Made by a program: the position numbers and the translations under genes. Positions 1,254-57,180 of a DNA stretch of 64,000 nt are shown here, in pieces. Below the pieces are notes generated by a model that saw only the letters and a list, made by a program, of their open reading frames with translations, was not told where the DNA came from and searched no databases. The stretch's first letter is position 1, and each line of letters starts with the position of its first letter. This DNA comes from a virus, in the IMG/VR virus record IMGVR_UViG_3300024264_002221, positions 1 through 64,000 of that record, one strand, 5' to 3'.

Positions 1254-1488
1254 CCCCCAAAAATTCAGATTTATAAAACTTTCTACCCGTGGTATATCCA
1301 AACCAACCACTTGCACCATAATCGTACATTTTACCCGCAAACTTTTCTTCCTCTACAGATAAGGTTTTAATTATTTCTAAAACTGCATGAAGAGGAAACT
1401 TTGCGTTCTCATCTTCTGTTTTATCAATCCATCTTTGAACTTCCTTGGAAACAACCTCTAATGGTGTATCAACTTTCTTTACTTTCAT
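1201..1488 (-). CDS. Hypothetical protein, 95 aa
   Basis: The start at 1488 (MKVKKVDTPLEVV) overlaps the end of the CDGSH gene by only 20 bases. An earlier in-frame ATG at 1545 would lie deep inside that gene. The N-terminal 60 residues look helical, followed by KMYDYGASGWFGYTTGRKFY and a Lys/Glu-rich tail. No known family is recognised. Overlaps on both sides suggest translational coupling. Confidence 0.6.
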   Translation of the reverse strand: MKVKKVDTPLEVVSKEVQRWIDKTEDENAKFPLHAVLEIIKTLSVEEEKFAGKMYDYGASGWFGYTTGRKFYKSEFLGDGKKKTKETEELGVCQG

Positions 1489-1660
1489 CTTCTTTTGGTT
1501 TGTGTGAACCATCACATAATATTGTTTTACTTTTTCCGCACCCACATATTGAGAATTTAGTTGGGTGGTGTCTTATCTTTTTACCGTCTGAACCCACAAG
1601 TTCGACCTCACCTTCCAATAATTTAATCTGTCCCTTCTCGTTCCTGAATAATCTCACCAT
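1469..1660 (-). CDS. CDGSH-type iron-sulfur protein, 63 aa
   Basis: Residues 39-53 read CGCGKSKTILCDGSH, matching the CDGSH (mitoNEET-like) signature that binds a redox-active 2Fe-2S cluster through three Cys and one His. Here these are C39, C41, C49 and H53. The spacing between the second and third Cys is one residue shorter than in the usual CxCx2Sx3PxCDG form, so this is a slightly divergent member. At 63 residues it is a single-domain protein like bacterial CDGSH proteins, with no membrane anchor. Bacterial members are linked to Fe-S or redox homeostasis. A phage copy may protect Fe-S enzymes during infection (inference). It overlaps genes on both sides. Confidence 0.8.
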   Translation of the reverse strand: MVRLFRNEKGQIKLLEGEVELVGSDGKKIRHHPTKFSICGCGKSKTILCDGSHKPKEDESKES

Positions 1661-1814: not shown

Positions 1815-1891
1815 ACTTTAAATTTCATCAAATATAATATATTTTTTAGAATATACAAAATTATAATAGGAATTCTTTGATATTACCGCAT

Positions 1892-1925
1892 AAAAAAACC
1901 CTTAACTGTTACCAGAAAAGGGTTT
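1892..1925 (-). terminator. Rho-independent terminator of the structured RNA
   Basis: Read on the minus strand, an 8-bp stem AAACCCTT/AAGGGTTT (1918-1925 with 1896-1903) is followed by a run of seven T (1892-1898). It marks the probable 3' end of the candidate ncRNA. Confidence 0.75.
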
Positions 1926-2399
1926 AATAAAAAAGGAAAGTAAATGTGTACTAAGGTATGCTAGCCTTAGATGATCATTCTGTTGTGTCTTTTACTCATA
2001 CAACTATACTAAATTTTACTTTAGTTCAACATTAGACTGTTAATCTAATAATGCGGGTACAACCCCTTATAGTTTACTTTACCCCCAAACAGAAGGGTTA
2101 TTCAGTCACAAGGTGAGGTTGATCTTTCGATCGTCTCACAATGAGTTTGAAAGTTAGCTATCTTGCTGTTTTTAATGTCAACCACTTCTTCTCTGTCAAG
2201 ATACCCCAACATCAGTCTTGCGAACTTCAGCCAGAATAGTAGAACGTGTCTACTGTCGGTGTGGATTAACCTCCTTCCAAAGGTTTATTCTCCAATACAC
2301 TCAGGAAATTGATGATCAATCGTTATCCTGTCACTTTCCAATATTTTAAAGAACGTTAGGGGTTAATCGGTATCATTTTGTTCAACCTATCCCTTTTGT
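1892..2399 (-). ncRNA. Candidate large structured non-coding RNA, ~500 nt
   Basis: This is the only gene-free stretch longer than 500 bases. It has a promoter upstream and an intrinsic terminator at its end, both on the minus strand. It is full of local helices: 1951-1956/1965-1970, 2008-2013/2020-2025, 2031-2036/2044-2049, 2239-2243/2249-2253, 2268-2272/2281-2285 and 2302-2306/2326-2330 enclosing 2308-2312/2316-2320. The clearest is 2113-2117/2135-2139 enclosing 2121-2124/2129-2132, which closes on a GAAA tetraloop only when read on the minus strand. No long reading frame exists. It lacks the signatures of tmRNA, RNase P RNA and introns. Size and phage setting recall large ornate phage RNAs such as ROOL and GOLLD, but I see no sequence match. 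Confidence 0.7.
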
Positions 2400-2404
2400 T
2401 GGTA

Positions 2405-2435
2405 CAAATATATAAAACATTTTTTATTAAATCAA
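2405..2435 (-). promoter_or_regulatory. Bacteroidota-type promoter for the structured RNA
   Basis: On the minus strand: TTG (2433-2435), 20 bases, then TATATTTG (2405-2412), followed by TA. This fits the Bacteroidota housekeeping consensus TTTG-N17-20-TAnnTTTG. Transcription would begin near 2399. Confidence 0.7.
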
Positions 2436-47262: not shown

Positions 47263-50200
47263 TTATCCTGTTACGACTACTCTTCCTGATCTACTTGTTT
47301 CAAATTTAACCACAACCACCCCATTTAAAGAATTTATTGCCGAAGGGAAAAATAAATCACCATTACTATCATATACCTGTACAATCACGTTGTCGGTTCC
47401 TAAACCATGGGTAAAAGTAACGGTACCCACATTACTGAATGTAGAAACATTAACCGCCGGTATCTTTTTCCAAGATTGCCAAGTACCACTATTTTTACCT
47501 CTAACCGCAATTCGTCCACTTCTATAGTCACCCGCAATTTGATGTTGCCATGCTGAACTATATATTTGTGAGTAGAGTGCTCCGTCAGTTGCGTTACCTG
47601 AGAAGTTTGTCACACCACCTGTGTAGTATGTGATACCCGCACTATCTAAGGAGTCCGCATCAATCCCTGCACCTGAATTTGTGTTTCTAAATGCGACACC
47701 ATCAATCATATCTGCTGATCCCGCTGTGGATGCGTAACTCACTGATTGGGATCCAATATTTCCTGAGTGTATAAATTCTCTCCAACCCTCTAATGAACCA
47801 TTTTCCATTCTTTGGAACCATACTTGGTCATCATGGAAATCAAACGCCATTTGTACATAGTAACCAGCACTATTTGCGTGGTTCATTATTATTTGGTGGT
47901 GCCAATCAGTATTTGGGTTTTGTGGTGCCTCACCATTCATACCTGTACCTCCCGCACCACTCTGATCCATCCATTGGAATTGACCCGTACCGAACGTAAT
48001 TGATGAGTTCTCGGTAATTCTATTGTGGTCGTGAGATGAATATGCATATCTACCGTCTAAATCGACTGTCTGATCAGTTGCCCCATTCACACTCGCCGTA
48101 AGAACACCAGTACTAGTATCGAAACTTAATCCATCAACATAGTAATTATCATTTCCACTATCGGTGACTGTTTCTGTGGCCGTAGTTATACCCGTAACGT
48201 GTCCGTTACCATCCACTAAAATGTCCTGAACATACGTTCTACCACTATTGTTAGAAGATGTGGCCGCAGTAATATTATCGTGGGCTGTATAACTTTCAGA
48301 GGTTAAATACCTACCATCAATATCGACAGTAAATCCAGCATTACCTGTTCCTGTACCTGTAATTACACCTGTAGCATCATCAAACGTAGCTCCACTTATG
48401 TAATCTATATCATTATCATTTCCACTATCGGTGACTGTCTCTGTTGCTGTTGTAACACCCGTAACGTGTCCATTACCATCTAATAAGATGTCTTGTATAT
48501 ATGTTCTACCCGAGTTATCTGAAGAAGTAGCCGCGGTGATCGTTGGGTGTTGTTGGTATGAAGTATAGTTACCTGCGTGAACCACAATGTTACCGTTGAT
48601 TCTAACCGCACTGTTACCATTAACCACAAAGTTAACACCATCAGTCGCATCGTTATGTGATTTAATCTCAATGACAGAACCTGACAATCCACCACTATTA
48701 CTTGTGTGTAATATATGTGCGGTATCTGAGGAATCTGTGGTATCTTCTTTATCATAACCTGTCCAATAGATACCTCTACCTTGGTTGGATGTGGTTACAG
48801 GTCCATCAAACTCAATATTACCACTTCCGTTAATTACTTTATTGTTTCCAACGTATAATGAACCAAGTGGGTCAATAGTAATAGCACCACTTGCATTAAC
48901 ATTAAAAATTGGAACACCTGACGAATCAGAGACGGCAAATAAATCACCTGTTAAATCATCTGTAATTGAGAATAACTGACCACTTGTACCTTGGATATCG
49001 AATATTGTTGATCCCGATGTGGATGATGTCAACGTTAGTTTATCAGTAAATTCTGACTGACCATTTGATCCTAAAGTTAATATTCTTGTACTTGATTTAA
49101 CGAATTGTAAGTTACCACCACTGTTTGTTGTTAGATCATTTGGTGATTCAACAATTCTAAATCCGTTACCACCTAACCATTCGATACCTTCTGTTGGTCC
49201 TGGGTCTGCAATTGTAATATGGTTAACATTACTTATTGAACCATTAACCATATTAATACCACTACCGTTCATGTTAATGGCACCACTCATAGTTCCACCG
49301 GATTTTAGTAGGAAGTCACCTGATGCATATCCTGCCGCTGAGTGGTCTCCCCATCCATATGCGGTATTCCAATTATTAATACTACTTTGTTGAAAGTGTC
49401 CGGTGTGCCATAATTGGTATCCAGTACCCCATGACGCCGAGTCGTATGATTGGTCAGAGACGTAAACATTTGTACTGTACTTGTCGAACACCAATGCGTG
49501 TGACCCTTTTACATCACCACCATTATATGCACTAATCCAAAGTACATCATTCCAAGATCCCCCGAATCCAAGGTTAGTGTTTGATAGCATCGCTATCTTC
49601 AGTTTTCCTGATCCAAACGTTGCTGAATTTGGTTTTTCTGTACCACCAGCTGAGTAGTGTCCACCTAAATAGGAACCAACAGCATTACCACCACTTGTAT
49701 ATGTTTTATTTTCTGAAAGTGATTTTAAACCATACCTACCATCAATAGCGACAGTCCATGTACCTCCATGGTGTGTCCCTGTTATAATACCGTTACCCGT
49801 ATTGAATGATGCACTTGTCGTATACCAGTTAACATCTGTATCAACCGCAAACCCTGAAACATCTACGGTACTTCCGTTTGATTTGGTTAAGGTTAGTATC
49901 TGATTACCACTGTTATATGTACCACCCGTTACAGTAACGTCTATTAGGGCTGATGCTATACTTACACTGTAAGTATCTCCATCATTTCTTGTGAATTCAA
50001 GGGTACCTGAACCACCATTAAAAGTGGCACCTGTCGTATATTCATTAGTATCGGTATATCCTGTTATGTACCCTGCAGTATTGTGGTCTCCCCATCCATA
50101 TGCGGTTTTAAAGTTTTGTATGTTTGTTTTACTTAATTCCTCACCGTCAATATAAAGTTTCTTTTGGTAGAGTTTCATCCACTCTTGATAGTTTCCAGTC

Positions 50201-53200
50201 CCATCTAAACCTACATCGTATGCTCTCCAAACAAATGGTTCACTATAATCATCAGAAGTCCAAAACTCCATTTCACCATCATTATTGGTGTAGTTAAATC
50301 TAATACCCGCAACATCATTAGTTCCTGTCGGAACAAACTTTATCATTGGGTTAGTACCTGTCATATTAAGATTACCCGATAACGATCCTCCCGACAATTG
50401 TAGATATCTATTGTCTACATCAACCGTATATGTGTCACCATCATTTCTTGTAAATGTGATTATACCATTACCACTATTAAATGTGGCACCTGTTGTATAC
50501 TCGTCATTTTTCACATACCCTTCAGTGGAATGGTCACCCCATCCATATGCGGTTTTAAAGTTTTGGATATTAGTTTTGGTGAGGTCTTCCCCATCTAACC
50601 TAAGTAAATCCCCTCTAAGTAGTGCGGTTTTTCTTGCCGCCCATCCACCTGACCAATTACCTGTTTCTGAATTAACCTCAAGACCTTGTTCTGCATTGAT
50701 ATAAACATATTCATTTCCTTGTCCCGTAGCGTAAGCGTAAGATTCACCAGCATTCAATATTAAGTGTTGTCCCGCACCCCTTATATCTCCATTGACAGTC
50801 AATGATCCTGTGAACGTATCTGTAGTGTTTAATAAATAACCGCTTAAGTCTTGGTCACCTGTGTATCCCGCTACTGAATGATCTCCCCATCCATATGCTG
50901 TATTCCATTGTGAGATGTTAGTTGAACTAAAATCACCACTGTGCCATAATTGTTTCCATGTTTGCCATGTTGAACTGTCCGTTCTGGTCCTCATGTAAAA
51001 ATCTGATCCGTTATAGTGTGCACCTATCTGAAACATAGATGCTGAACCACCTACATTACTTGAAAATAGGTGTGCACTCGCTCCCGTGTAATTTATGACA
51101 TAACTTCCACTACCCGTAACTCTGGTTTCTGTCTTAGAATCATCAAACGGATTACCACCTGTTAAACTTATACTTCCTTTATTATCTTGGAAATATCTAT
51201 CGTCATGATTATGTGAACTTAGTGCGTATCTACCATCTAAATCGACATTGAACGTATCACCACCATTATTTCTAGTGAATGTAATAATACCGTTACCTGT
51301 GTTAAATGTCGCACCTGTTGTAAATTCATTTGTATTTGTAAATCCTGTAATATATCCAACTTGTGAGTGGTCACCCCATCCATATGCGGTATCCCAATTA
51401 GTATCTTTTCTTGTACCCGCACCTGTACCTGTCGCCGGTTTGGAGTATATACCTTCTTTGTACATTAACTTACCATCGGCAAGTATTGTCATTGTGGGTT
51501 GATTTGTTGATAACACTATAGACGCACCAGAACCATAACTAGAACCGTCACCATGGTAATGTGTTATATATGCTCTTTGTGTACCAGTCCCTGGGTTATC
51601 ACTAAATTCAATTCCCGTACCTAACCCATTACTTGAGTTTTCTAACTTTAAACTATATGTGTTACTGCTTGAAATAGTACCACCATCTAGTGGTAAATAC
51701 CTACCATCAATATCAACAGTCCATGTATCACCTCCATTACGTGTTCCTGTTATAATACCGTTACCGGTATTAAACGTTGCACCCGTTGTAAAATTATTTG
51801 TATTATCAAGTGCAAATCCCGTAACTTCAACAGTAGTCCCGTCTGATTTTGTTAATGTTAATGTTTGGTTACCATCATTATATGTACCACCTGTAACAGT
51901 AACTTCCGTTAATGCTGATGATATATCTACTGAGTATGTGTCGCCATCATTTCTTGTGAATGTAACAATTCCTGTCCCACCATTCCATGTTGCTCCTGTT
52001 GTGTACTCATCATTATATTCTTTTAGATAATTTTCAGTTGAATGATCTCCCCATCCGTACGCTGTATTCCATTGTGATGAATCACCACCATTTGCGTATA
52101 TTCCTGACCATCTATATGATGACGAACCTAAACTTCTTGTGTTGTTGGTGTATGGTCTAACATCTCCGTCGAAGACAGTTGATGAAGTACCAAAATAGAA
52201 TGGTTTATTACCTTCGAAATGTATCCACCCTGAGTTCTTAGAACCAATATCAATATAACCTGTAGATGTTTTAAATCTAAACGCATTACCAGCCGCTTCC
52301 TCTATTATTGAATTACCGTCGTTAAGGTTTACCCCACCAACAGTAATAATATTCGAAGTGGTCGCACCTCTATCGGTTACACTATCTAAAGTGTCCACTT
52401 CACTATATCCTGTGATATACCCTTCGGTAGAGTGATCACCCCATCCATATGCTGTATTCCAATTTCCTGAATTACCTCCTGATGCGGTTACAACACCACT
52501 AAAATCACCAAGACCACCATAAACACCTTTCCATCTGTATGTAGATGTACCCATATTTGAGTTAGAGGCTGTGGTTGATGTGTTTGGTATTAATGCGGTT
52601 CCAACAAAATGTACATGATTTTGGTCACCACTCCTACCAAAACTTGCGTTACCCATTTGTACGGTAGGTACGGTAAGAGTACCTGTCATGGTGTCTCCAC
52701 CTAATTTTACATATCTACCATCTAAATCAACGGTTTGATTTGTCGATCCATTAACACTTGCGGTAAAGACACCAGTAGATAAATTAAATTCTACACCATC
52801 AACGTAGTAATTGTCATTACCACTATCTGTTACTGTTTCAGTGGCAGTGGTTAGTCCTGTTACGTGTCCATTACCGTCTAATAGAATATCTTGGATATAT
52901 GTTCTTCCACTATTGTTAGAAGATGCCGGTGATGCAATTGGTGGGTGTTGTGTTAAATACGTATTTGAATCTACACTACCATCCGCCTTTAAGAATTGTG
53001 ATGATGTACCACCACTCTTAATAAATGAAGTCGCTGTAAGGTTACCACCATTAGATAATGACATTTTAGTGGTGTACCCACTATTATAATGTTTCCAATT
53101 AATTGCAGAACCATCATATAAAACTTGGTAATAATTAGAACCGTTTGCTTTGAACCTATATCCATATTCACTATAATCCGTACCATCTAATGCAATTGCC

Positions 53201-56200
53201 ACACCGGCATTTGCGGAGGATTCACCAGCACTCGCGTTAATTACTAATGGTGCCCATGGTGATCCACTACCTAATGTTATTCCTCTTGAGGTGGTATTAC
53301 CCCTTGCAACCACACTATCTAAAGTGTCTGTTTCAGAATAACTTGTTAAATACCTACCGTCTATATCGACAGTAAATGTATCCCCATCATTTCTTTTAAA
53401 TGTAATTACACCATTACCACTATTAAATGTGGCACCTGTCGTATATTCATCATTATAATCTGTTAGGTAATTTTGATCACCAACCCAATCTCTTGTTGCA
53501 ATATGATACCATGTTGATCCCGTTATTGTGTTAGTACCCGCAAAATTTCTAAAGTATAATCCGTCTCCATTAACTAATGTTGATCCCCCTAATTGGAAAC
53601 CATAATTACCGTCTGTTTGAGATACATGTAATATTGTGTTGTGACCACTGATAGGTCCGTTAGACGCGAAATTTCTATATATACCAAATTCTGTATAATC
53701 ATTAGCGTCACCATTTGTACTATATAATTCACTATGTACTTGTGCCCTTGTGTCTAAAAATCTACCGTCTATATCAACAGTAAATGTGTCACCATCATTT
53801 CTTTTAAATGTAATTACACCATTACCACTATTAAATGTTGCTCCTGTTGTGTATTCATTGTTGTAATCTGTAAGATAACTTCCTGTTTCCGCCTCAATAC
53901 CATCTAATCTACTATCTAAAGTGGTTAAGTCCGTATTATCTAATAATCTTTCTTCAGATCCTTTTTGACCACCCTTCCAATAGTTGGTTTGTCCGTCCCA
54001 TATTAAAGAACCAGATAATAAGTCAGGAGATGTGTTATCTCTAACTTCGATACCTGCATTTTGTGCTCCACTACCATTTAAAGATATAATGTTATCCCCT
54101 ATCTCGACAGTTGTTGAATCTACTCTTGTTTCTGTTCCTTTAATTAAAAGATCCCCCTTAATAGTTACGTTAGACCCTGTAAATTCTAAACCACCTTCTA
54201 TCGTGTCTAATCTACTGTCTAAACCTGTAATATCACCATTTAAACTTCCAGTCTTAGTCTCTAAAGAATCTAACCTTCCATCGTGTGAACCACTTGTCGT
54301 TTCTATACTATTTAACCTATTATTTTGGGTTGTATTAGTACTATCATTAGAAGATGTATATGAATTAAAAGTTGTTCTAATACTACCACTTTCAGTCTCT
54401 AAAGAAACTAATCTAAGATCTTGGTTTGAGTTAGTAGTGTTATTAGATGAGGTATAAGTATTTAAATCAGTTCTAAGTGTTGTTACGTCAGTATCAGTAG
54501 CATATGTATCATCAATACTCGAAGTGAACTCCTCTAACGCATCTACCCTATTACCTAAGTTAGATACGTCTGTGGATAGACTACCCGTCTTGGTTTCAAT
54601 AGAATCGACTCTACTATCTAATGTAGAAATATCTCCATTTAATGTGGAAATATCACCTTCTAAACTACCTGTTTTAGTTTCTAAAGAATCTAATCTGTTT
54701 TTATGTTCCCCTAATTTTGTTTTTTGTGATCCACTTACGACTTCTAAAGAATCAACTCTACCATCTAATGTGGAAATATCACCACTTAAACTTCCTGACT
54801 TAGTTTCTAAAGAGTCTATCCTACCACTTAAGTTTTGTTTATCTGTTTCGTTGGACGAAGTGTAAGTATTTAGATCACCCCTTAGGTTAGATATATCTGT
54901 ATTTAAACTACCAGTTTTGGTTTCTAAAGAACCTAACCTATTGTTTTGTGATGTGTTAGTTGAATCGTTGGATGAGGTATAAGTATTTAAATCACCTCTT
55001 AGATTAGTTATATCCGAGTCGGTTGCATATGTGTCATCGATACTTGCCGTGAATGATTCTATACTGTCTAACCTACCATCGTGTGAACCACTTGTTGTTT
55101 CTAAACTACCTAATCTACTATTTTGAGTAATATTGGTAGAATCGTTGGATGAGGTATAAGTATTTAAATCACCTCTCAAAGTGGTTAAATCAGTATCAGT
55201 TGCATATGTGTCATCGATACTTGCGGTAAAGGATTCTATACTGTCTAACCTACCATCAACCAAATTATAATTAGTTGTTCCAGTAATATCCACTTGTATG
55301 GAACTACTAATTACGGTTTCTGTATTTAATTTAGTTTTAACTCTATCATCTGTATAATAAAGATTGGTTGTTCCTTCGGTGATTGAATCTGTATCACCTG
55401 CTCCACCGACAAAAACTTTGTTACCCATACCATTATGGTTGGTACAATAATATAATAATGTTTGTGGGGTATCTTGATTTACAACTATTTGAACGTATGC
55501 TCCTGATAAACCTTCGGTACCATTTACGGTAACACCGTCTGTATATTGACTATTGTTAGTTAATGAAAATCTGAATGGGTGTCCTGAATTTGATGAGTGA
55601 GATACATCAAACCTATAAACTAGTCCTTTTGCTAATGAGACAATTTGTTGTTCTACACCATCTATGTAATATACACCACCACTTGCAGTTACGGTAACGT
55701 CAACATATTGTGTTATTGGTGAGGTTGAATTTAAAACAAATTCAGAACCTGAGACAACATTTTCCGTATTTAGTTTTGATTTAATATCTGTAGTCAAAGA
55801 ACCACTTTTAGTCTCTAAACTACTTAACCTACTATTTTGTGTTGTGTTGGTTGAATCATTGGATGCGGTATGAGTGTTAAAGTCAGATCTCATAGTACCA
55901 TCCACACTACCAGTAAATGTTTCTAATAGGTCTAACCTCCCATCGTGTGACCCACTTGTCGTTTCTAACGACGTGAATCTATTATTACTTGCAGTATAAT
56001 GGGCCGCAAACGCTTCATCATTTGTGGTGTCAACACTATTAATAAGTCCTACGATTTCTGCGAATGAATTCTTATCAGCATCAGAAGAATCTAAAATAGC
56101 ATCCACATCTGTTTTTAATAATGATATATCAACTCCATCAACAGTCCCTGTTAAATCTATACTACCTGTTACAATTAATCCATTACCGAAAACAATTGAG

Positions 56201-57180
56201 TTTCCGTCAGAAGATATTACTTTGTTACCGGCTGTTATTTGTATAGGTGCGTCTAATTCTATGTTACCCGTTCCTGAAGAACTTAATGTAATATCACCAT
56301 CAACTGTTTGTAGTGTGATAGTATCAGAACCCGTTTCTAATATTTTTATTGATTCACCACTATCTGTAGTGACTCTTAATTCAGTACCTGTAGTTGAGAG
56401 TACTTGTTGTCCATTTATATATAATGACCCTGATGAAAGATATAAATCTCTCCACTCCTTGTCGGGTGCACCTAAATCAATTGTATTTGTGATACTAGGT
56501 ATAATTGAAACATTAGTTATCAAACTGTCTGAGGATATCGACGCGGTTGCTGTTGTACTTGCAATCCGATCTAAACTTAGACCCGTAACCCCACTTGCGG
56601 GAACATTAATTAAACCACTACCATCTCCCCTAAAAGAACCAGTGAACGAACCCGATAATTGAGCTAACTCTTCATCACTGTCGTTAGTGGCCATTAACTT
56701 TAAACGACCATTATTTACTTTAAGAACTTTCTTGTTTGATCCGTGACCTAATTCAATTTCAGACGCAATTAATCTTTTTAAGGTGTTACCACTATCGTGA
56801 AGTTGTACATCACCATCACTATTCTTAGTTATTTTTGTACCACCCAAATCAATAGTACTTCCCGCTAAATATATATCATTCCATCTTTTAGTATCGCTAC
56901 CCAAATCATGAGTAAGTGTTCCTTGAGGTAACAATGATCCACTAATTGTTTGATCCCCAATGAATACATTACTTCCAGTAGTAGCTGCGGTATTTTTATA
57001 ATCATTAAAACTTGATGTGAGTAAGTAGGAGGCGGCGTGTGATGCACTTATTGCATTATCAACACTTCCGTCAATCTGTGCAGTACCATAGATAGTTCCT
57101 TGTACTGTTAAATCCCCTTGTATTTCCGCCGATGCGGAGACGGATAGGGATCCTGTAATGTGTGGATCAAATATATTCAT
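47263..57180 (-). CDS. Giant repeat-rich tail fibre, 3305 aa
   Basis: The start gives HITGSLSVSASAEIQGDL, a leader like those of the three tip proteins. Residues about 390-480 and 600-1050 have LETxSGSL-type coiled-coil repeats. Residues about 488-592 look like a cupredoxin-type domain (His534, Cys579, His582, Met585). The rest holds at least seven W-x-TAYGWGDHS blocks and many TTGATFNSGNGIITFTRNDGDT-type blocks (written here in part), a pattern of marine phage fibres. The C-terminus (VTFTHGLGTDNVIVQVYDS) resembles a tip head. It extends like a needle to contact the host. No chaperone domain is fused. Confidence 0.9.
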   Translation of the reverse strand: MNIFDPHITGSLSVSASAEIQGDLTVQGTIYGTAQIDGSVDNAISASHAASYLLTSSFNDYKNTAATTGSNVFIGDQTISGSLLPQGTLTHDLGSDTKRWNDIYLAGSTIDLGGTKITKNSDGDVQLHDSGNTLKRLIASEIELGHGSNKKVLKVNNGRLKLMATNDSDEELAQLSGSFTGSFRGDGSGLINVPASGVTGLSLDRIASTTATASISSDSLITNVSIIPSITNTIDLGAPDKEWRDLYLSSGSLYINGQQVLSTTGTELRVTTDSGESIKILETGSDTITLQTVDGDITLSSSGTGNIELDAPIQITAGNKVISSDGNSIVFGNGLIVTGSIDLTGTVDGVDISLLKTDVDAILDSSDADKNSFAEIVGLINSVDTTNDEAFAAHYTASNNRFTSLETTSGSHDGRLDLLETFTGSVDGTMRSDFNTHTASNDSTNTTQNSRLSSLETKSGSLTTDIKSKLNTENVVSGSEFVLNSTSPITQYVDVTVTASGGVYYIDGVEQQIVSLAKGLVYRFDVSHSSNSGHPFRFSLTNNSQYTDGVTVNGTEGLSGAYVQIVVNQDTPQTLLYYCTNHNGMGNKVFVGGAGDTDSITEGTTNLYYTDDRVKTKLNTETVISSSIQVDITGTTNYNLVDGRLDSIESFTASIDDTYATDTDLTTLRGDLNTYTSSNDSTNITQNSRLGSLETTSGSHDGRLDSIESFTASIDDTYATDSDITNLRGDLNTYTSSNDSTNTSQNNRLGSLETKTGSLNTDISNLRGDLNTYTSSNETDKQNLSGRIDSLETKSGSLSGDISTLDGRVDSLEVVSGSQKTKLGEHKNRLDSLETKTGSLEGDISTLNGDISTLDSRVDSIETKTGSLSTDVSNLGNRVDALEEFTSSIDDTYATDTDVTTLRTDLNTYTSSNNTTNSNQDLRLVSLETESGSIRTTFNSYTSSNDSTNTTQNNRLNSIETTSGSHDGRLDSLETKTGSLNGDITGLDSRLDTIEGGLEFTGSNVTIKGDLLIKGTETRVDSTTVEIGDNIISLNGSGAQNAGIEVRDNTSPDLLSGSLIWDGQTNYWKGGQKGSEERLLDNTDLTTLDSRLDGIEAETGSYLTDYNNEYTTGATFNSGNGVITFKRNDGDTFTVDIDGRFLDTRAQVHSELYSTNGDANDYTEFGIYRNFASNGPISGHNTILHVSQTDGNYGFQLGGSTLVNGDGLYFRNFAGTNTITGSTWYHIATRDWVGDQNYLTDYNDEYTTGATFNSGNGVITFKRNDGDTFTVDIDGRYLTSYSETDTLDSVVARGNTTSRGITLGSGSPWAPLVINASAGESSANAGVAIALDGTDYSEYGYRFKANGSNYYQVLYDGSAINWKHYNSGYTTKMSLSNGGNLTATSFIKSGGTSSQFLKADGSVDSNTYLTQHPPIASPASSNNSGRTYIQDILLDGNGHVTGLTTATETVTDSGNDNYYVDGVEFNLSTGVFTASVNGSTNQTVDLDGRYVKLGGDTMTGTLTVPTVQMGNASFGRSGDQNHVHFVGTALIPNTSTTASNSNMGTSTYRWKGVYGGLGDFSGVVTASGGNSGNWNTAYGWGDHSTEGYITGYSEVDTLDSVTDRGATTSNIITVGGVNLNDGNSIIEEAAGNAFRFKTSTGYIDIGSKNSGWIHFEGNKPFYFGTSSTVFDGDVRPYTNNTRSLGSSSYRWSGIYANGGDSSQWNTAYGWGDHSTENYLKEYNDEYTTGATWNGGTGIVTFTRNDGDTYSVDISSALTEVTVTGGTYNDGNQTLTLTKSDGTTVEVTGFALDNTNNFTTGATFNTGNGIITGTRNGGDTWTVDIDGRYLPLDGGTISSSNTYSLKLENSSNGLGTGIEFSDNPGTGTQRAYITHYHGDGSSYGSGASIVLSTNQPTMTILADGKLMYKEGIYSKPATGTGAGTRKDTNWDTAYGWGDHSQVGYITGFTNTNEFTTGATFNTGNGIITFTRNNGGDTFNVDLDGRYALSSHNHDDRYFQDNKGSISLTGGNPFDDSKTETRVTGSGSYVINYTGASAHLFSSNVGGSASMFQIGAHYNGSDFYMRTRTDSSTWQTWKQLWHSGDFSSTNISQWNTAYGWGDHSVAGYTGDQDLSGYLLNTTDTFTGSLTVNGDIRGAGQHLILNAGESYAYATGQGNEYVYINAEQGLEVNSETGNWSGGWAARKTALLRGDLLRLDGEDLTKTNIQNFKTAYGWGDHSTEGYVKNDEYTTGATFNSGNGIITFTRNDGDTYTVDVDNRYLQLSGGSLSGNLNMTGTNPMIKFVPTGTNDVAGIRFNYTNNDGEMEFWTSDDYSEPFVWRAYDVGLDGTGNYQEWMKLYQKKLYIDGEELSKTNIQNFKTAYGWGDHNTAGYITGYTDTNEYTTGATFNGGSGTLEFTRNDGDTYSVSIASALIDVTVTGGTYNSGNQILTLTKSNGSTVDVSGFAVDTDVNWYTTSASFNTGNGIITGTHHGGTWTVAIDGRYGLKSLSENKTYTSGGNAVGSYLGGHYSAGGTEKPNSATFGSGKLKIAMLSNTNLGFGGSWNDVLWISAYNGGDVKGSHALVFDKYSTNVYVSDQSYDSASWGTGYQLWHTGHFQQSSINNWNTAYGWGDHSAAGYASGDFLLKSGGTMSGAINMNGSGINMVNGSISNVNHITIADPGPTEGIEWLGGNGFRIVESPNDLTTNSGGNLQFVKSSTRILTLGSNGQSEFTDKLTLTSSTSGSTIFDIQGTSGQLFSITDDLTGDLFAVSDSSGVPIFNVNASGAITIDPLGSLYVGNNKVINGSGNIEFDGPVTTSNQGRGIYWTGYDKEDTTDSSDTAHILHTSNSGGLSGSVIEIKSHNDATDGVNFVVNGNSAVRINGNIVVHAGNYTSYQQHPTITAATSSDNSGRTYIQDILLDGNGHVTGVTTATETVTDSGNDNDIDYISGATFDDATGVITGTGTGNAGFTVDIDGRYLTSESYTAHDNITAATSSNNSGRTYVQDILVDGNGHVTGITTATETVTDSGNDNYYVDGLSFDTSTGVLTASVNGATDQTVDLDGRYAYSSHDHNRITENSSITFGTGQFQWMDQSGAGGTGMNGEAPQNPNTDWHHQIIMNHANSAGYYVQMAFDFHDDQVWFQRMENGSLEGWREFIHSGNIGSQSVSYASTAGSADMIDGVAFRNTNSGAGIDADSLDSAGITYYTGGVTNFSGNATDGALYSQIYSSAWQHQIAGDYRSGRIAVRGKNSGTWQSWKKIPAVNVSTFSNVGTVTFTHGLGTDNVIVQVYDSNGDLFFPSAINSLNGVVVVKFETSRSGRVVVTG
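49330..52460 (-). repeat. Seven AYGWGDHS-coding repeat blocks in the fibre gene
   Basis: The block encoding (N/K)TAYGWGDHS occurs near 49345, 50089, 50532, 50882, 51370, 52045 and 52437, each followed by a variable linker. Spacing is about 350-740 bases. Nucleotide identity within the core is very high (CCCCATCCATATGC on the plus strand, with one variant at 52045). Confidence 0.85.
55405..55719 (-). other. Cupredoxin-like domain inside the tail fibre
   Basis: Encodes residues about 488-592. The ligand set SGHPFRF (His534) and YYCTNHNGM (Cys579, His582, Met585) follows the C-x2-H-x2-M copper site of amicyanin-type proteins. The domain sits between an N-terminal fibre section and the coiled coil. 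Confidence 0.6.

What the first reader, a model, noticed from the sequence alone, without database searches (positions are those of the whole stretch)
1892..2435. Possible new large structured RNA with its own promoter and terminator
A 508-nt stretch has no gene but has a Bacteroidota-type promoter, a clean terminator and at least seven local helices. One nested hairpin closes on a GAAA tetraloop only on the minus strand, which sets its direction. I find no tmRNA tag or CCA-type end, no RNase P core and no intron junctions. Large phage RNAs such as ROOL and GOLLD are known, but I cannot place this one.
Basis: partly seen in the sequence, partly recalled or inferred. Interest (0 to 1): 0.85.

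Follow-up and report, generated by a model that had tools for sequence, protein, structure and literature searches.

The report
Standalone phage RNA enlarging manA motif
A virus of Bacteroidota bacteria carries a roughly 500-letter RNA gene with its own start and stop signals; it is an enlarged relative of the poorly understood 'manA' RNA, and because it carries the anti-termination signal of ribosomal RNA genes and stands alone, it is probably an independent RNA and not the gene switch that manA was thought to be.

Summary
In detail: minus strand 2435-1892 has a Bacteroidota-type promoter, about 510 nt without a conserved reading frame, and an intrinsic terminator. The claim that no family fits is wrong in part. 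The 3' half is a divergent manA RNA (RF01745; full length, 49.6 bits, E=1.2e-11, just under the curated cut-off of 55.2, so the default Rfam scan is empty). What is new: in divergent phage groups the RNA is larger than manA and has its own architecture: an rRNA-type boxA, an outer helix P0 closing the whole RNA, hairpin P1, long-range helix P2, a second copy of the manA core (GAAUAA-hairpin-UAA), about 150 nt of extra helices, the manA core, a four-way junction, a 3' hairpin and a terminator. P0, P1, P2 and the core helices covary. Downstream genes differ between lineages and in the window have their own promoter, so a cis-acting riboswitch is unlikely here. The same boxA leads tRNA clusters and GOLLD RNAs in other phages; contigs had GOLLD or this RNA, never both (27 contigs). 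Homology to GOLLD beyond boxA is not shown. Best reading: a boxA-protected, standalone phage noncoding RNA; molecular target unknown.

The parts
2405..2435 (-). Bacteroidota-type promoter: TTG (2435-2433), 20-nt spacer, TAtaTTTG (2412-2405); start predicted near 2398
   Evidence: sequence; identical in L008/L023/L024
2346..2357 (-). boxA AACGTTCTTTAA (followed by AATATTGG), rRNA-type antitermination signal
   Evidence: conserved in all full-length relatives; same type of element in Bacteroidota 16S leaders
2331..2339 (-). P0, 5' strand (GGAAAGUGA), pairs with 1943-1935
   Evidence: covariation over six distinct sequences against shuffles; MFE fold
2302..2330 (-). P1 hairpin, likely true counterpart of manA P1
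   Evidence: 5 of 6 outer pairs with changes on both sides
2296..2300 (-). P2, 5' strand GUGUA, pairs with 1950-1946
   Evidence: GUGUA/UACAC to AUAUG/CAUAU, 100% of cells paired; MFE
2265..2290 (-). Core copy 1: [GAAUAA] ACCUUU-GGAA-GGAGGU [UAA]
   Evidence: helix covaries; second-best place in the RNA for a model trained only on copy 2
2141..2264 (-). Extra domain absent from classic manA; several covarying local helices in the nearer relatives
1942..2140 (-). manA-type region (Rfam RF01745 match, full model)
   Evidence: 49.6 bits, E=1.2e-11, gathering score 55.2
2076..2108 (-). Core copy 2: UGAC[UGAAUAA]CCC...GGG[UAAA]GU, signature of manA
2003..2073 (-). Four-way, cloverleaf-like junction of manA
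   Evidence: its complement gives the weak plus-strand tRNA match
1951..1970 (-). 3' hairpin
1946..1950 (-). P2, 3' strand UACAC
1935..1943 (-). P0, 3' strand UUACUUUCC
1892..1922 (-). Intrinsic terminator
1829..1858 (-). Separate promoter (TTG-19-TATATTTG) of the downstream 63-aa ORF 1814-1623; -7 element also present in L008
   Evidence: sequence

Best explanation
The locus makes a standalone, boxA-protected, stable noncoding RNA of about 500 nt, an enlarged variant of the manA RNA family. A Bacteroidota-type promoter starts it. The boxA would recruit the host NusB/NusE antitermination complex so that the untranslated RNA is finished without Rho-dependent arrest (inferred from rRNA). The RNA folds into one body closed by P0 and P2, holding two copies of the manA core module and a four-way junction (supported by covariation), and transcription ends at the terminator (predicted). 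It then most likely acts in trans during infection as a structured RNA, deployed like GOLLD and tRNA genes in other phages that use the same boxA (inferred); its target is not known.
For: manA match, relatives in IMG/VR. Covariation: 36 pairs, 93.8% of cells paired against 75.7% shuffled and at most 43% slid, 60 double-change cells against 19. P0 sum 118.5 against shuffle mean 83, maximum 108 of 500. MFE of 2339-1934 gives P0, P1, P2 and copy 1 unaided. Terminator at a constant place, 202-228 nt after the core, with unrelated sequences in window/L008, L247, L017/L044, L059, L015/L027. Following gene not conserved: 63-aa ORF, tRNA-Ala (L247; L017 by eye), 275-aa ORF. boxA matches Bacteroidota 16S leaders, and such sites precede tRNAs in 15 of 72 cases (random 4.4, maximum 10 of 1000). 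In manA outside this family, boxA lies 25-50 nt upstream in L015, L027 and L021 (3 of 19; shuffle mean 0.06).
Against: No expression data. Other manA RNAs (L010, L054, L011, L033, L002, L034, L203) have no terminator directly after them and sit just before a gene, as a cis-element would. Only six to eight distinct full-length sequences, and much of the contrast comes from one split between two groups. P2 has a weaker local alternative (GUGU with ACAC). A clear Bacteroidota promoter is seen only in the window/L008 group; L064 has no clear terminator.
Confidence: 0.7

Rival explanations
1. It is a cis-acting regulator (riboswitch or attenuator) of the downstream gene: ligand binding to the manA fold decides whether the terminator at 1922-1892 forms.
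For: manA was proposed as a candidate riboswitch from its 5' UTR positions (PMC2864571); a terminator follows directly; many other manA copies sit just before a start codon. A 7-nt complement of the terminator (AAAAGGG) occurs near the RNA's 5' end (read).
Against: The downstream gene differs between lineages, is a tRNA in L247, and in cyanophages is talC, a tRNA-Gly, hypothetical genes or an opposite-strand gene. In the window a separate promoter lies between terminator and ORF. The 7-nt complement is not kept in L247 or L044. P0 closes the RNA before the terminator.
Confidence: 0.15
2. It is a processive antitermination element: boxA plus the folded RNA modify RNA polymerase so that it reads through the adjacent terminator into tRNA or other genes.
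For: boxA near the 5' end and a terminator at a fixed place followed on the same strand by genes or tRNA-Ala; precedent of boxA in rRNA operons.
Against: Leader-type manA RNAs have no terminator to overcome; the downstream ORF in the window has its own promoter; one cyanophage copy is followed by an opposite-strand gene. A second core copy and about 150 extra nt are not needed for it.
Confidence: 0.1
3. It is a reduced relative of GOLLD that likewise builds a homo-oligomeric RNA assembly.
For: Same promoter-boxA layout, both phage-borne and large; never both in one contig (0 of 15 and 0 of 12). GOLLD 5' ends of one group match model R1 with 37-43 bits against 18-22 for boxA-tRNA controls.
Against: Without boxA the match falls to 15 bits, E=0.017, and 6 bits in another GOLLD. 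The reciprocal GOLLD model does not find either core copy. No RF02032 match.
Confidence: 0.1

Closest known systems
manA RNA (Rfam RF01745; Weinberg et al. 2010, PMC2864571)
   Same: Core UGACUGAAUAA-hairpin-UAARGU, P1 next to the P2 closing helix (the GGGaG/CuCCC pairing of the Rfam model), four-way junction, 3' hairpin; phage-borne
   Different: About twice as long: a second core copy and about 150 nt inserted between P2 and the core; outer helix P0, boxA, own promoter and terminator; not a 5' UTR; scores 5.6 bits below the gathering score
GOLLD RNA (RF02032; cryo-EM 14-mer nanocage, Kretsch et al. 2025, PMC12286853)
   Same: Large phage RNA, in these contigs led by the same boxA and often a TAnnTTTG promoter, near tRNAs; one AAUAA-hairpin-UAA-like module at a similar distance from boxA
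   Different: No match to the GOLLD model; reciprocal module models fail; about half the length; no GOLLD 3' domain
Pre-rRNA leader (boxA, then a helix closing the RNA)
   Same: boxA of the Bacteroidota 16S leader type, followed by a helix that pairs both ends of the RNA
   Different: No rRNA similarity; ends at an intrinsic terminator

Membership tests
manA RNA (RF01745) | Covariance-model score at or above the curated cut-off (55.2 bits) | tested here: not met
   49.6 bits, E=1.2e-11, full model 1-192; relatives L033, L011, L036, L034 pass
manA RNA (RF01745) | Core UGACUGAAUAA-hairpin-UAARGU with AC/GU closing pairs | tested here: met
manA RNA (RF01745) | P1 hairpin followed by the 5' strand of a helix that pairs with the 3' end | tested here: met
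   P1 2330-2302, P2 2300-2296 with 1950-1946, covarying
manA RNA (RF01745) | Four-way junction | tested here: met
   alignment; arms also in the MFE fold
cis-regulatory RNA or riboswitch (Rfam label of manA) | Directly upstream of, and co-transcribed with, a regulated gene | tested here: not met
   terminator and separate promoter before the next ORF; downstream genes not conserved; judged from sequence, no transcript data
GOLLD RNA (RF02032) | Match to the GOLLD 3' domain model | tested here: not met
   no match in G000 or 14 relatives; positive in 12 of 12 GOLLD contigs
GOLLD RNA (RF02032) | Homologous 5' domain | tested here: inconclusive
   against 103, 104
GOLLD/ROOL-like homo-oligomers | RNA-only multimer | not testable with these tools
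   needs mass photometry or cryo-EM
tmRNA, RNase P, ROOL, group I/II introns | Match to the Rfam model | tested here: not met
   ARAGORN
boxA-led stable RNA (rRNA type) | boxA of the host-phylum type near the transcript's 5' end | tested here: met
boxA-led stable RNA (rRNA type) | NusB/NusE binding and antitermination | not testable with these tools
   needs biochemistry

The most novel reading that the evidence does not exclude
manA, this enlarged RNA and GOLLD belong to one class of boxA-led, interchangeable phage RNAs built from a repeated core module and able to self-assemble, so that manA was misread as a riboswitch and is the small member of the RNA-cage family.
Probability: 0.12. Interest if true: 0.88.

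Novelty: new variant of a known kind. Interest (0 to 1): 0.6.

Why it matters
manA has been listed since 2010 as a candidate riboswitch without a ligand. A phage lineage in which it is a closed, boxA-led, separately terminated RNA gives a reason why a ligand may not exist and a clean system to test it. The boxA link also supplies a search handle for large phage noncoding RNAs (it retrieved GOLLD, tRNA clusters and this RNA in one scan) and ties two classes of unknown function, manA-like RNAs and GOLLD, to the same way of being transcribed.

Tried and rejected
Default Rfam scan: empty; only the E-value mode showed manA. The plus-strand tRNA match (E=0.25) is the complement of the cloverleaf-like junction: rejected as chance. 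The Rfam placement of P1 at 2140-2115 is probably forced; the covarying P1 is at 2330-2302. blastn of this RNA and of three relatives against annotated phages: no useful match except for the classic cyanophage type. Genome contigs: one manA-like contig (L197) and one chance hit. RNase P-like strings in L015 (ACAGAGUAAACCG, GGUAAGG): wrong order and not conserved in L027; dropped. GOLLD homology: R1 suggested it, but with boxA removed it is weak and the reciprocal model fails (also nhmmer), so it is not claimed. Two of the contigs used as boxA-tRNA controls (L233, L220) turned out to hold a GOLLD-type module elsewhere; their control sites are still the tRNA leaders. Two pattern scans added few true members. 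Minimum free energy alone does not favour the minus strand.

Full report
What is there. On the minus strand a Bacteroidota-type promoter (TTG-20-TATATTTG, 2435-2405) is followed by about 510 nt without a conserved reading frame and an intrinsic terminator ending at 1892. The longest minus-strand ORF inside (36 aa) is broken in the close relative L008. Folding energies are only moderately low and do not prefer the minus strand; direction comes from promoter, boxA, terminator, family match and covariation. The next ORF (1814-1623) has its own promoter at 1858-1829, whose -7 element is also present in L008.

Which family. The default Rfam scan of the window is empty. With an E-value threshold, 2140-1942 matches the full manA model (RF01745), 49.6 bits, E=1.2e-11, under the gathering score of 55.2. 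manA was described in 2010 as a candidate riboswitch in marine metagenomes and cyanophages, in potential 5' UTRs of varied genes (PMC2864571); no later functional work was found in the held library.

Relatives. Scanning IMG/VR for the core TGACTGAATAA-hairpin-TAARG gave about 30 true members in many lineages, several above the Rfam cut-off. Full-length relatives of the window RNA came from core and boxA patterns: L057 (same), L008/L023/L024, L064/L102/L140, L247, L272 (3' cut), and a divergent group L017/L044/L047/L059/L060. In 84,980 bacterial and archaeal species genomes only one contig with the strict pattern was manA-like, so the element is essentially phage-borne.

Architecture. The alignment and covariation give: boxA; P0; P1; P2; core copy 1; an extra domain; core copy 2; the four-way junction; a 3' hairpin; P2'; P0'; terminator. 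For 36 pairs, 93.8% of cells pair (75.7% shuffled, at most 43% slid) and 60 cells change on both sides (19 shuffled). P2 switches from GUGUA/UACAC to AUAUG/CAUAU. P0 is 6-11 bp with several different sequences, summed score 118.5 against a shuffle mean of 83 and maximum of 108. Folding 2339-1934 alone returns P0, P1, P2 and copy 1 as the minimum free energy structure. In classic manA, P1 and P2 lie directly before the core; here a second module and about 150 nt stand between them. That copy 1 is a second core is supported by a model trained only on copy 2: it finds copy 1 of L044 (26.2 bits, E=0.002 in 513 kb) and ranks window copy 1 second in the RNA (12 bits, E=0.006 in 519 nt).

boxA. AACGTTCTTTAAAATATTGG lies about 40 nt after the predicted start. 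Chitinophagaceae-family 16S leaders (relatives of a Segetibacter genome) carry the same type of element (AAGTTCTTTGAAAGTTTGGA, 147 nt before the gene in L318). In viral contigs the pattern lies in non-ORF stretches twice as often as random positions (36 of 72 against 17) and is followed by a tRNA within 300 nt in 15 of 72 (random 4.4, maximum 10). It also leads GOLLD RNAs: all 12 contigs tested carry RF02032, 11 of them over the cut-off. Among other manA RNAs, L015, L027 and L021 have a boxA 25-50 nt before the core.

Relation to GOLLD. Fifteen contigs with the window-type RNA have no GOLLD and 12 GOLLD contigs have no manA core, although many contigs are fragments. A model of the 5' part scores 37-43 bits in one GOLLD group against 18-22 in boxA-tRNA controls, but boxA supplies about half. 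Without it the best GOLLD gives 15 bits, E=0.017, another 6 bits, a control 6.7 bits, and the reverse model finds nothing at either core copy. Homology is therefore open. GOLLD forms a 14-mer cage (PMC12286853); whether this RNA oligomerises is untested.

How it works. Supported by comparison: a single closed fold under selection, in a fixed boxA-RNA order, with a terminator at a constant place in all full-length lineages except L064. Inferred: boxA protects the untranslated transcript from Rho, as in rRNA; the RNA is stable and acts in trans. Against a cis-acting switch: downstream genes differ by lineage, include a tRNA, and in the window are separately promoted; in cyanophages they are talC, a tRNA-Gly, hypothetical genes or an opposite-strand gene. 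For it: many other manA copies sit directly before a start codon, so manA as a whole may hold both kinds, or its leader copies may also be separate RNAs.

Verdict. Real, conserved, larger than and differently placed from known manA RNAs: a new variant of a known RNA kind.

Noticed in passing
L205, L206, L235, L238, L243, L256, L293, L298 and others: GOLLD RNAs in these phage contigs begin with an rRNA-type boxA, often after a TAnnTTTG promoter; no paper linking GOLLD with boxA was found in the held library.
   Followed up: partly
L225, L229, L233, L240, L274, L279, L297, L298: The same boxA string stands directly before tRNA clusters in phage contigs, a handle for stable-RNA operons.
   Followed up: yes
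L245:1266-1800 (+), contig of 339 kb: boxA followed by a CRISPR-like array (repeat ATTGTTGTAGACCTTGTGTTTTAGGGGTCTAACAAC) in a very large viral contig.
   Followed up: no
L289:1072-1121 (-): Type I hammerhead ribozyme match (35.9 bits) about 800 nt downstream of a boxA in a noncoding-looking stretch.
   Followed up: no
L244, L237, L281 (downstream of boxA): boxA-led stretches without long reading frames; L244 and L237 have no non-tRNA Rfam family at gathering score there. Possible further phage noncoding RNAs.
   Followed up: no
L197 (WOR-3 MAG contig, 356-386 +): manA-like RNA in a contig binned as candidate division WOR-3, similar to phage contig L010; probably a phage contig.
   Followed up: no
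GU071098.1 151381-151634 (L201): In Synechococcus phage S-SSM7 manA runs straight into a tRNA-Gly gene and is itself annotated as a hypothetical protein.
   Followed up: no
window 1469-1660 (-): 63-aa ORF with a CDGSH iron-sulfur-like motif (CGCGKSKTILCDGSHK) two ORFs after the RNA.
   Followed up: no
window 47263-57180 (-): Very large ORF of 3305 aa, not examined.
   Followed up: no
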